From assembly GCA_036939755.1 (NCBI GenBank), contig JALLAZ010000133.1:1-21971 (forward strand): 21,971 bases of DNA, in the 5' to 3' direction. Source of the stretch: Stephanodiscus triporus. Lineage: Eukaryota; Bacillariophyta; Thalassiosirophyceae; Thalassiosirales; Thalassiosiraceae. This document shows positions 16,501-19,360 of the stretch, piece after piece (positions within the stretch are counted from its first letter, which is position 1; each line of letters starts with the position of its first letter). The notes under the pieces were generated by a model. The model did no database searches, was not told the origin of the DNA, and saw nothing but the letters and a program-made list of their open reading frames with translations. The position numbers and the translations under genes were made by a program.

Positions 16501-19215
16501 GAAGTCGCACAATTGGAATCATCAATTGCTAACTACAAAGCAGAGTATGCAACACTCATCAGAGATGTGGAGGCTCTCAAGAGAGAAATGGAAATTGTAA
16601 CAACGAAAGTATCCCGTGCAGAAAGTCTGATGAGGAGTCTCAGCCAAGAGAGTTCACGCTGGTCCAAGAGTAGTGAAGGGTTCCAAGCCATCCTAAGAAA
16701 TCTAGTCGGTGATGGATTGCAAATGGCAGCATTCCTCACATACTCAGGATTTTTTACATTTAGTACAAGGCGCTTACTGCTTCGGCAATGGCGCAACACC
16801 CTTCATCTTCTTGGCATTGAATTTCGGGACAACTTGAGTATGGTCGAATCTCTTAGCAAAGCTTCAGATAGGCTGACATGGCAATCACAGGGCCTTCCTT
16901 CTGACTCTCTCAGTCTGGAGAATGGAGTCATTTTAGATTGCTGTGTTCGTTTTCCGCTCATTATTGACCCATCTGGACATGCCATTGATGTAAGAATTGT
17001 ATTGACAATACTTCTTCTCGGATTCTGCGCACTATTTTCGATTCATATTGCAATTATTGTTTATCTTTGATTTCATGGTACAGTTTGTCATGAACAGGTA
17101 TCGAGATGAAAAGATTCAAAGGACTTCTTTCCTTGACAAAGCATTCATGAAGACCCTTGCTGGAGCAGTACGATTCGGAACAACTCTTTTGGTGGAAAAT
17201 GTAGAGAAACTAGATCCCGTGCTTAATCCTATTTTGAACAAAGAAATACAGAGAACAGGTGGAAGATGTTTGGTTAGGATTGGAACGGAAGAAGTCGATT
17301 ACAGTCCCAAATTCAAAATAATCCTCACCACGAAGAATCCCGCGGTAAAATTGACCCCAGATATTTGTTCTCGTGTAACGCTGGTCAATTTCACGTAAGT
17401 TCATTTGGATTTTGAGAATGGGTTATCCAACACGATTTTGGTTTCTTACCATTACATTTGAACGCCAAATACACAGAATCACTCCCGCTGGTCTGCAGAG
17501 TCAAAGTCTAAGCCGAATTTTAGAGTGTGAGAAACCAGAAATTGAGAAGCAGCGGAATGACATCTTGAAGCTGCAAGGTGAACAAAATGTCAAATTGCGA
17601 AGTCTCGAGGAGAAGATGCTTAGGGAAATTAGTGCCGTCGAGGGTAGTATTCTTGATGACGATCGTGTCGTCGAGGGCATGGAGCGTCTGATGAAAGAGG
17701 GTGCCCAAGTGGAGGAGCAAATTGCTAACAGCGCCAAGGTCATGTCAGAAGTTCAGGGGGCAATCGTAAGTACCATATACGTGGATGTCATGTATCGAAC
17801 TGTGATTCGCCTTCTGACTTGATATATTTTTGGATGCTCTACAGGCTGTATTTGAGCCCTTTTCTTTAGTTTGCAAGGAACTTTTCATTCTGTTCTCCGC
17901 CATGAAGGAGATTGATTTCCTTTATGAGTTCACTGCACAGTCATTTACGAGTATGCTGCTGTGTGTGCTCAACAGCAACACCGACAAAAAATTCAGTGAA
18001 GGGCAAGAACGCCTATCATTTTTGAAGAAACAGTTGTATAATGAGGTTGCTTCAAGAGTTGGCCGAGGGTTGAGGGCCGAGGATAAAATGGTGTTTGCCC
18101 TCCATCTTGCCAAGATCGCGACAGGAAACGACATGATCGGCGAAAATGTTGCGGAATTATCTACTGATGACATAACGTGTATGATAGATGGAGCTTTTGG
18201 ACTCAACTTTCCCTGGCAAGGAAAGGGGTTGAACGACCTAAGAGATGTGACATTCAAAGATATTAACTCAATGGTGCCGTTACTTCTATGCAGTGCACCT
18301 GGTCATGACGTCAGTGGGAGGGTGGAGGCGATGGCAAGATCCGAATCCAAAGAATTGCTCTCTGTTGCCATGGGTAGCTCTGAGGGATATAGGACAGCTG
18401 AAAACTTCATTGCCACTGCATCGAAGAGGGGAATTTGGGTCATGCTCAAGAATGTCCACCTCTGCACTGAATGGCTTGAAGACACATTGGTCAAAATTCT
18501 TCAATCAATGAACGCAGGAACACATCGTGATTTTCGCTTGTTCATAACTAGTGAAATCAGTCCCAAGCTTCCTACTTCTCTCCTCCAGATCAGTGATGTA
18601 ATTGTGGCCGAATCCCCCACTGGCATCAAGGCAGCTCTATCTCGATTTTTCTCAAGTATATCAAGTGAGAGATTCCGCAATAGTGTTCAAAATCGACTCT
18701 ACCTGATACTTGCTTGGGTCCATTCCGTCATCCAAGAGCGCCTCCGTTTTATGCCTAACGGTTGGAGTGATAGGTATGAGTTCACTGAGGCAGACGCCAC
18801 GCATGCCCTTGATGTCATTGATTCATTAGTGGATGATGCATGTGGAAGAAGGCAAAATTTGGATCCGGAAAAGCTTCCTTGGGGGGCAATTAGATCGACG
18901 CTATGCAAGGGCGTATTCGGTGGCAGAATTACAAACGATTCAGACCAAGCCATTCTTGACGATCTTGTGAACAAGTCATTCGTTCCAAAAGCATTCAACG
19001 TTGACTTCATGCTAGCAGATGTTAAAGGTGCACCTGTGCTACCTGAAGGAAGCTCAAAGGAAGAACTGTTTGCATGGATTGATTCTCTACCCTCTCACAA
19101 CCCTCCCACATGGATAGGCCTAGATGAAACGGCGGAAATTGCGAGGGATAAAATGGTGGCCAAGTCTGTTGTGCAGAAATATGGAATTGTGAGCAGCGCT
19201 CTATCTGATGAGTGA
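4594..19215 (+). CDS. DYNC1H1: Cytoplasmic dynein-1 heavy chain, 17 exons (4409 aa)
   Basis: This is the minus-end microtubule motor subunit. Exons: join(4594..6777, 6898..7507, 7587..7778, 7856..11053, 11136..11228, 11305..12382, 12452..13156, 13210..13640, 13735..13804, 13884..13981, 14080..15608, 15697..16036, 16111..16229, 16378..16989, 17084..17394, 17477..17765, 17845..19215). All 16 introns are GT-AG, 53-148 bases, with agreeing phases. P-loops lie at residues 2067-2074 (AAA1), 2359-2366 (AAA2), 2733-2740 (AAA3) and 3078-3085 (AAA4). Walker B motifs, the stalk, the microtubule-binding domain, AAA5 and AAA6 are all present. MGRIFCGLCQVGAWGCFDEF and VDPEWAENLNSVLDDNKLL favour dynein-1 over dynein-2 or axonemal types. 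Animal dynein-1 has about 4650 residues; the shortfall is the C-terminal domain, partly offset by tail insertions. The start has a GACCATGG context; a second ATG at 4681 would omit the Arg run. Confidence 0.93.
4609..5406 (+). other. Low-complexity insertions in the dynein N-terminal tail
   Basis: Within exon 1 the predicted protein has a Lys/Arg run (4612-4650), an acidic DEDD stretch (4822-4860), poly-Thr then poly-Gln (4956-5021), long Asp/Glu/Gly runs (5137-5240) and a second acidic run (5338-5376). Between them lie ordinary segments that may align with the dynein tail. The runs are encoded by GAG, GAC, ACT and CAG repeats. They could be surface loops, or part could be intron or misread leader, but no splice signals remove them. 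Confidence 0.6.
4956..5021 (+). repeat. ACT/ACG then CAG trinucleotide repeat (poly-Thr/poly-Gln)
   Basis: The DNA is a run of ACT and ACG units followed by seven CAG units, a CGG and two more CAG. In the dynein frame it reads twelve Thr, seven Gln, one Arg and two Gln. Such runs are often length-polymorphic. Confidence 0.85.
9361..11053 (+). other. Dynein linker region (C-terminal part of exon 4)
   Basis: This part of the heavy chain matches the linker that swings to produce the power stroke. Recognisable blocks include DALKDRHWKTILQRLNVH, CRW-equivalent LIRGWDDLF, WIDVQRRWVYLEGIF with GSADIK, RFYFLGDDDLLEIIGN, ITELVHQCDVTRS and FGFEYLGI-type sequence (here YGFEYLGIGERLVQTPLTDR). Their order is that of the dynein-1 linker running into AAA1. 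No key block is missing. Confidence 0.85.
11136..11830 (+). other. Dynein AAA1 module (main ATPase site)
   Basis: Exon 5 opens with GGNPFGPAGTGKTES (Walker A; Lys2073, Thr2074). Exon 6 supplies the GAWGCFDEFNRLEER block with Asp2119-Glu2120 of Walker B, then FVTMNPGYAGRSNLP as sensor I and QSHYDFGLRALK. All catalytic residues expected of an active AAA1 are present. The Walker A exon is only 93 bases long. Confidence 0.9.
11831..12760 (+). other. Dynein AAA2 module
   Basis: Walker A is GPSGVGKT (residues 2359-2366). The following IDPKSISKEALFG and WIVFDGDVDPEWAENLNSV blocks match dynein-1 AAA2, whose Walker B has DGD rather than DE, as is usual for this nucleotide-binding but non-hydrolysing site. 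The 69-base intron at 12383-12451 splits the Ser codon of NSVLDD. Confidence 0.87.
12761..14079 (+). other. Dynein AAA3 module
   Basis: Walker A is GPPGSGKT (2733-2740), Walker B is LVVFCDEINLP, and sensor I is FVGACNPPTDAGR, assembled across the introns at 13641-13734 and 13805-13883. Both catalytic motifs are intact, so AAA3 regulatory ATPase activity is expected. Four introns fall inside this region, giving exons as short as 70 bases. Confidence 0.88.
14080..15440 (+). other. Dynein AAA4 module
   Basis: The region starts with IYRTFNGGIMKLFPHL (family norm IYGTFNRAM). Walker A is GDSGAGKT (3078-3085), Walker B is CFIFDEGNVL with the usual LLASGEVPGLFDGDEY block, and sensor I is VVFTMNPSGG followed by SPALFNRCVVDWFG. 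The site looks competent. Animal dynein-1 has DES where this protein has DEG. Confidence 0.88.
15441..16640 (+). other. Dynein stalk coiled coil and microtubule-binding domain
   Basis: Coiled coil 1 spans the end of exon 11 and exon 12 (NNQREKIEDEQLHVNAGL onward, residue about 3342). The microtubule-binding domain runs from EPALNSAKNSVKDIKKK through RNLGRPP, the DWADVRKLL and FIPSILSFD helices, to EKVMRSSKACGPL (about 3430-3545). Coiled coil 2 begins WAESQIKYSSIY in exon 14. The CC1 to MTBD to CC2 order and lengths match dynein-1, including the Pro-Pro hinge. The acceptor of exon 14 is unusual, with nine A directly before the AG. Confidence 0.88.
16641..19215 (+). other. Dynein AAA5 and AAA6 modules and abrupt C-terminus
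   Basis: AAA5 includes FPLIIDPSGHAID, RTSFLDKAF, NPILNKEIQRTGGR and PDICSRVTLVNFT, with a degenerate nucleotide site as usual. AAA6 includes ILKLQGE, the EPFSLVCKELFILFSAMKEI helix, RGIWVMLKNVHLC and RLFITSEISPKLP, then FNVDFML and WIDSLPSHNPPTWIGL. The protein ends only 33 residues after TWIGL, where other dynein-1 chains continue for roughly 400 residues as the C-terminal domain. Confidence 0.85.
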
Positions 19216-19244
19216 TAAGTGTGGGATAGTAGAAGGCCCAATCA

Positions 19245-19250
19245 AATAAA
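19245..19250 (+). terminator. Poly(A) signal candidate for dynein
   Basis: An AATAAA lies 30 bases after the dynein stop; a second copy is at 19309-19314. Their position supports the TGA at 19213-19215 as the genuine end of the message. Confidence 0.45.
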
Positions 19251-19360
19251 GCGACAGCATCATCGGATGGAGATAACGCCGGTTTAAGGGGTCTTTAAAC
19301 GATATGTTAAATAAAAAGACCAATATCACAATTTACATTTATGACTACATACAGAGCGAA

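What the first reader, a model, noticed from the sequence alone, without database searches (positions are those of the whole stretch)
18990..19260. Cytoplasmic dynein-1 heavy chain that ends after AAA6, without the C-terminal domain
Seen: the frame stops at 19213-19215, 33 residues after TWIGL, a block that in other dynein-1 chains is followed by roughly 400 further residues. A poly(A) signal lies 30 bases later, and the next 1.6 kb holds an opposite-strand small frame and COQ3, leaving no room for the domain. Known: the C-terminal domain packs on the AAA ring and tunes force and processivity, and fungal dynein already has a shorter one. Inference: this lineage may run a motor with a natural complete deletion.
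Basis: partly seen in the sequence, partly recalled or inferred. Interest (0 to 1): 0.75.

Follow-up and report, generated by a model that had tools for sequence, protein, structure and literature searches.

The report
Diatom dynein motor lacking its cap
The main cargo-moving dynein of this diatom really does end where the motor ring ends, without the C-terminal cap found in animals, as in the other diatoms examined and in yeast; the absence in diatoms was already noted in print in 2014, and what is added here is when in diatom history it happened.

Summary
The window encodes a full-length cytoplasmic dynein-1 heavy chain that stops (TGA 19213-19215) 30 residues after TWIGL, with no Dynein_C domain. 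It is not peculiar to this genome. In three capped protein searches the closest relatives end at the same place: 110 of 110, 25 of 25 and 114 of 116 listed rows that reach the motif. They include named diatoms (Corethron, Leptocylindrus, Coscinodiscus, Skeletonema, Seminavis) and five MMETSP transcript ORFs labelled complete. The neighbouring clade with Triparma (Bolidophyceae) keeps the domain, so the simplest reading is one loss on the diatom stem.
The deletion is not 'complete'. An AlphaFold2 model keeps the proximal helix H1 and ends level with the end of yeast Dyn1 (4091 of 4092) and with human 4347-4353, beside the engineered rat construct that ends at 4348. What is gone is the CT-cap.
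Gleave et al. 2014 (PMC4047620) already say that diatom cytoplasmic dynein lacks this region, so the fact is known. New here is an order of events: the AAA5-AAA6 connector is about 95 residues shorter in both diatoms and the Triparma clade, while the CT-cap is missing only in diatoms. Yeast is reduced in the same two places. A higher-force, more processive motor is predicted, not shown.

The parts
4594..19215 (+). cytoplasmic dynein-1 heavy chain gene, roughly 15 introns; start codon provisional
   Evidence: tblastn collinearity with P0128, P0132, P0125; splice model with Walker A motifs of AAA1-AAA4 (junctions near 12384 and in 13615-14078 not resolved, so that model holds six internal stops there)
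17845..19215 (+). last exon: end of AAA5, short AAA5-AAA6 connector, AAA6, helix H1, stop
18109..18276 (+). shortened AAA5-AAA6 connector: 56 residues between aligned positions 93 and 150 of P0001, against 149-169 in 23 of 24 non-diatom, non-Triparma-clade rows
19108..19122 (+). TWIGL block
19126..19209 (+). C-terminal helix, model residues 433-460, read as H1; last element of the protein
   Evidence: AlphaFold2 model, aligned to yeast ..4091-4092, human ..4347-4353, Dictyostelium ..4437
19213..19218 (+). tandem in-frame stops TGA TAA
19245..19250 (+). AATAAA poly(A)-signal-like hexamer

Best explanation
This is the only cytoplasmic dynein-1 heavy chain found in the genome held, which belongs to a diatom (the gene groups with that of Skeletonema). 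Like every diatom dynein-1 row examined here that reaches this point, it lacks the CT-cap, the distal 280-310 residues or so of the C-terminal domain (six helices and a beta-barrel), and it keeps the proximal helix H1 that packs back on AAA5/AAA6. The cap was most likely lost once, on the diatom stem, after the Bolidophyceae had split off. [quoted passage not shown] The result is a motor ring pared down in the same two places as yeast dynein. Shown here: gene, end point, absence of the domain, shared end point in relatives, retained helix (as a model), and the distribution of the two reductions on a tree. Inferred: the order of loss by parsimony, and that without a cap over the ring pore and AAA1 the motor behaves like yeast dynein and like rat dynein with the cap cut off, with higher stall force and longer runs.
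For: Dynein-1 identity. No Dynein_C in the last exon; in the genome PF18199 occurs only on C48 and C289, which are outer-arm axonemal chains. Residues after the motif: of 120 short rows listed, 110 reach it and all 110 have 27-47; P0123-P0147, the 25 best long rows, 25 of 25, have 27-33; of 117 new middle-length rows 116 reach it, 114 have 24-37 and 2 carry the domain. Tree of 68 rows, 67 of them picked by hand from the 357 fetched: window plus 38 capless rows form one side of a 100/100 branch; the five rows of the Triparma clade, all with 307-341 residues after the motif, stand next to it, and the 24 other rows are split off by a 100/99 branch. Transcript ORFs that their source labels complete: P0102, P0104, P0126, P0142, P0258. 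Model: last helix 433-460, mean pLDDT 85. Structure alignment: yeast dynein 7mgm first by Z (30.1), ending at 4091; human chains end at 4347-4353; Foldseek ranks human dynein-1 first. Connector length: window 56, 39 diatom rows (window included) 47-58, Triparma clade 55-62, 23 of 24 others 149-169. Function of the cap: PMC4339881, abstract and passages, rat 1 to 6 pN on removal.
Against: The mechanical consequence is not tested. PMC4339881 itself cites Dictyostelium work in which removal of the cap lowered processivity, reports that ensembles of the rat construct did not glide microtubules, and says that other parts of the motor may also contribute to species differences. Only one row of the sister clade (P0152, Triparma verrucosa) has a named species; the other four come from unnamed contigs. 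P0209 (Globodera) has a short connector (66) while keeping the domain, so the connector can shrink on its own, or that gene model is faulty. Yeast keeps three extra helices after AAA5 (PMC4047620), so the connector reduction there seems smaller than in diatoms. The genome held is fragmentary (21.65 Mb, 1324 contigs, completeness unknown).
Confidence: 0.85

Rival explanations
1. The domain exists but is joined by splicing from the GTGAGC at 19189 to distant exons, or was cut off by an assembly break.
For: GTGAGC is a plausible donor; the genome is fragmentary.
Against: The residues encoded beyond that site are conserved as coding sequence in close relatives (..ALSDE then end: P0003, P0004, P0005, P0006, P0008, P0015). 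The contig runs 2.7 kb past the stop. Transcript ORFs of relatives labelled complete end there, as do transcript-derived P0128 and genome-annotated P0132.
Confidence: 0.02
2. The cap is supplied in trans by a separate gene.
For: None found; the genome held may be incomplete.
Against: PF18199 at E up to 10 hits only C48 and C289, both outer-arm chains. A query carrying a dynein-1-type cap (P0357, cap from about residue 626) matches well beyond that point only in the C48 outer-arm chain, to residue 832 at 25% identity.
Confidence: 0.03
3. The loss is real but mechanically neutral: the cap was dispensable, and regulation by dynactin, LIS1 or the linker sets force in diatoms.
For: Effects of cap removal differ between rat and Dictyostelium (PMC4339881 passages); dynactin subunit 2 is present in the genome. 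LIS1 was not searched for.
Against: Removing the cap alone moved rat dynein to yeast-like force (abstract of PMC4339881).
Confidence: 0.35

Closest known systems
Ascomycete dynein-1 (S. cerevisiae Dyn1)
   [quoted passage not shown] Table 1); the diatom model ends at the yeast end (4091 of 4092).
   Different: Independent loss, since yeast is an opisthokont. The diatom region is about 20% identical to yeast but about 33-36% identical to human and Dictyostelium dynein-1. Yeast keeps three extra helices after AAA5.
Rat MD-deltaCT construct (Nicholas et al. 2015, PMC4339881)
   Same: Engineered to end at residue 4348 and to keep H1, the place where the diatom protein ends naturally (human 4347-4353 by structure alignment).
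   Different: An engineered GST dimer without the tail; in the passages read, the AAA5-AAA6 connector of the rat motor is not said to be altered.
Other diatom dynein-1 chains
   Same: The rows seen here lack the cap; noted in one sentence by Gleave, Schmidt and Carter 2014 (PMC4047620, section 3.7, passage read; author names recalled).
   Different: No difference in kind; this is one more member.
Bolidophyceae (Triparma verrucosa) dynein-1, P0152
   Same: In the clade next to the diatoms; similar short AAA5-AAA6 connector (58).
   Different: Retains the C-terminal domain (PF18199 at 4253-4512).

Membership tests
Cytoplasmic dynein-1 heavy chain (DYNC1H1) | Sequence closer to dynein-1 than to dynein-2 or axonemal chains | tested here: met
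   last exon: 290-301 bits to human and Dictyostelium dynein-1 against 125 for the next family
Cytoplasmic dynein-1 heavy chain (DYNC1H1) | Tail, linker, AAA modules and stalk in order; Walker A in AAA1-AAA4 | tested here: met
Cytoplasmic dynein-1 heavy chain (DYNC1H1) | C-terminal domain with CT-cap, usual but not universal in the family | tested here: not met
   Ascomycota lack it too (PMC4047620), so it does not define membership
Cytoplasmic dynein-1 heavy chain (DYNC1H1) | Assembly with intermediate and light intermediate chains and dynactin | tested here: inconclusive
   dynamitin found; light intermediate chain, p150 C-terminal region and p62 not above cut-off, in a fragmentary genome searched exon by exon; intermediate chains not searched
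Capless (yeast-type) dynein-1 motor | Protein ends after H1, no Dynein_C | tested here: met
Capless (yeast-type) dynein-1 motor | Stall force of several pN and long runs of a single dimer | not testable with these tools
   needs optical trapping of the purified motor

The most novel reading that the evidence does not exclude
Stramenopile dynein-1 was pared down in two ordered steps, first the AAA5 extension in the ancestor of Bolidophyceae and diatoms, then the CT-cap on the diatom stem. The result converges on the ring architecture of yeast and gives living intermediates in which each element's effect on force can be measured in natural motors.
Probability: 0.75. Interest if true: 0.5.

Novelty: already known. 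Interest (0 to 1): 0.35.

Why it matters
The CT-cap is an element shown to account for most of the force difference between mammalian and yeast dynein (PMC4339881), so capless yeast dynein can look like an exception. An ecologically large group, the diatoms, appears to have made the same change independently and kept it. With Bolidophyceae as capped neighbours, this offers a natural before-and-after pair for testing what the cap does.

Tried and rejected
Considered and dropped: assembly break or distant splice (see rivals); a fourth heavy chain on C210, whose weak PF03028 hit (23.4 bits, under the cut-off) lies in a frame that looks to me like midasin (that name is recalled, no family search was run); the opposite-strand small frame as a gene (dispersed repeat). 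In one search I had labelled six rows beforehand as possible capped stramenopiles; five fell together in the Triparma clade and one, P0153, fell elsewhere.

Led nowhere: the dynactin p150 C-terminal family gave no hit, and the tool warned that this shows no absence. Light intermediate chain gave one sub-threshold hit, while 8 of 14 control genomes rang below the cut-off too; p62 gave one sub-threshold hit. An alignment of the repeat with locus flanks was uninformative. The spliced model holds six internal stops because junctions near 12384 and in 13615-14078 were not resolved; it is used only for exon limits and Walker motifs. Literature: (dynein, CT-cap, diatoms) found no paper; the listings (10 of 74 listed) showed no fuller treatment of the diatom loss than PMC4047620. 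Most subscription journals are not in that library.

Full report
Observation. The window is a whole contig (C133) of a 21.65 Mb, 1324-contig genome. The dynein frame ends at TGA 19213-19215, followed at once by TAA. The last exon (17845-19215) matches Dynein_heavy and AAA_lid_11 and nothing of Dynein_C. Its best solved relatives are human, then Dictyostelium, cytoplasmic dynein-1 at about 290-300 bits, against 125 bits for the next family. The full gene from about 4594 is collinear with diatom heavy chains P0128, P0132 and P0125, and Walker A motifs are present in AAA1 to AAA4.

Is the end real? Three searches cover three length classes of relatives; each lists only its best 120 rows. Short class, about 253-806 residues: 110 of 120 reach the motif, and all 110 have 27-47 residues after it; the other ten stop short of it. 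Long class: the 25 closest, P0123-P0147, all have 27-33 residues and no PF18199 in their precomputed domains. Of the following 95, all but four (P0155, P0174, P0176, P0201), by my reading of the list, carry PF18199. Middle class: of 117 new rows, 116 reach the motif, 114 have 24-37 residues, and two (P0357, P0360) carry the domain. Tail lengths are estimates from BLAST ends. Five rows are MMETSP transcript ORFs that the source labels complete (P0102, P0104, P0126, P0142, P0258), which places the stop in messenger RNA of relatives; their species names were cut off in the listings.

No domain elsewhere. PF18199 at E up to 10 gives four matches, all on C48 and C289. These chains are outer-arm dyneins: the tested part of C48 is nearest to outer-arm beta (1066 bits), that of C289 to outer-arm alpha, followed by an outer-arm gamma chain. 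Wickstead and Gull 2007 report for Thalassiosira pseudonana a dynein-1 chain and three outer-arm chains and no inner-arm chains (PMC2239267, passages read); here two outer-arm chains were found. Passages of PMC5654045 mention a 'cytoplasmic dynein 2 heavy chain' transcript in Leptocylindrus danicus, so the repertoire may vary. The genome may be incomplete.

Where the protein ends. An AlphaFold2 model of the last exon (20 aligned sequences, the window's own and 19 that I chose from the 120; mean pLDDT 85.1) ends in a helix, residues 433-460. Structure alignment puts the model's end at yeast 4091-4092, human 4347-4353 and Dictyostelium 4437. Yeast chains head the list by Z, human chains by Foldseek E-value. 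Gleave et al. define the C-terminal domain as 4015-4092 in yeast and 4364-4730 in Dictyostelium and say that its first part is present in all dyneins (PMC4047620). So the diatom keeps that first part, including the helix that I read as H1, and lacks the second part. The rat construct of Nicholas et al. ends at 4348 and keeps H1 as in yeast (PMC4339881, passages read). The diatom gene is therefore a natural version of that truncation, not a more radical deletion.

When it happened. In a tree of 68 AAA5-AAA6 regions, the window and 67 rows picked by hand from 357 fetched, the window and 38 other rows, among them Corethron, Leptocylindrus, Coscinodiscus, Skeletonema, Seminavis and Nitzschia, form one side of a 100/100 branch. 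All 38 are capless: 37 were measured at 27-33 residues, and the motif pattern missed P0259, which is within 24-37. The five-row clade with Triparma verrucosa (Bolidophyceae) has 307-341 residues after the motif and is separated, together with the diatoms, from 24 other rows by a 100/99 branch. The root was not inferred; with the root among those 24, the Triparma clade is the sister of diatoms. One loss on the diatom stem is the simplest reading. P0358 and P0221 are long branches.

A second, earlier loss. The AAA5-AAA6 connector (residues between aligned positions 93 and 150) is 56 in the window, 47-58 in the 39 diatom rows, 55-62 in the five Triparma-clade rows, and 149-169 in 23 of 24 others, with P0209 (Globodera) at 66. 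Five rows from different records agree, which makes a gene-model error in the Triparma clade unlikely; whether introns were modelled in the metagenome rows is not stated. Gleave et al. list four extra helices in this connector among the four regions that Dictyostelium has and yeast lacks, while yeast still has three extra helices there. That this insert is the 'AAA5 extension' named by Nicholas et al. is my inference. Diatoms thus lack two of the regions that yeast lacks, and the tree gives an order: connector first, cap second. H1 runs next to the AAA5 extension in entry 3VKH (figure legend), so the two reductions touch the same face of the ring.

What it probably does. Removing the cap raised rat dynein force from 1 to 6 pN and greatly lengthened runs (abstract of PMC4339881). 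The same paper cites Dictyostelium work in which cap removal lowered processivity, and says that removal of cap plus H1 disrupted communication with the microtubule-binding domain. Since diatoms keep H1, allosteric coupling should be intact. A strong, processive motor is the leading prediction, at about even odds on its own. Dynactin subunit 2 is present (C34, 115 bits), so the usual activator is likely present at least in part; Hammesfahr and Kollmar 2012 report that subunit 3 was not found in stramenopiles and subunit 6 not in Bacillariophyta (PMC3583065, passages).

Novelty. [quoted passage not shown] The core fact is therefore known, in one sentence. In the listings I saw no paper that places the loss on the diatom stem or notes the connector loss; that library lacks most subscription journals.

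Noticed in passing
window 19348-19540: Dispersed repeat of about 200 bases, 11 other copies at 69-76% identity in 10 contigs; similarity in several frames on both strands in the copies tested, so probably non-coding.
   Followed up: partly
window 18109-18276: AAA5-AAA6 connector about 95 residues shorter than in most other dynein-1 rows; shared with the Triparma clade.
   Followed up: yes
G000 C48 and C289: The only other dynein heavy chains found by PF03028 over its cut-off are outer-arm types with C-terminal domains; no inner-arm or dynein-2 chain was seen.
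   Followed up: partly
G000, whole genome: Dynein light intermediate chain, dynactin p150 C-terminal region and p62 gave no hit above cut-off, while dynamitin did (C34). This may be divergence, introns or an incomplete genome.
   Followed up: partly
window 3245-4243: Long overlapping open frames on both strands (332 and 321 aa stop to stop) upstream of the dynein gene; neither has a Pfam match at E up to 0.01.
   Followed up: partly
window 21203-21856, minus strand: 217-residue open frame without a Pfam match.
   Followed up: partly
window 4594-5700: The N-terminal part of the heavy chain frame is rich in low-complexity runs (T, Q, D, E, G); the start codon is uncertain.
   Followed up: no
P0176 (Jimgerdemannia) and P0209 (Globodera): P0176 ends 14 residues after the motif; P0209 keeps the domain but has a short AAA5-AAA6 connector (66). 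These may be independent changes or faulty gene models.
   Followed up: no
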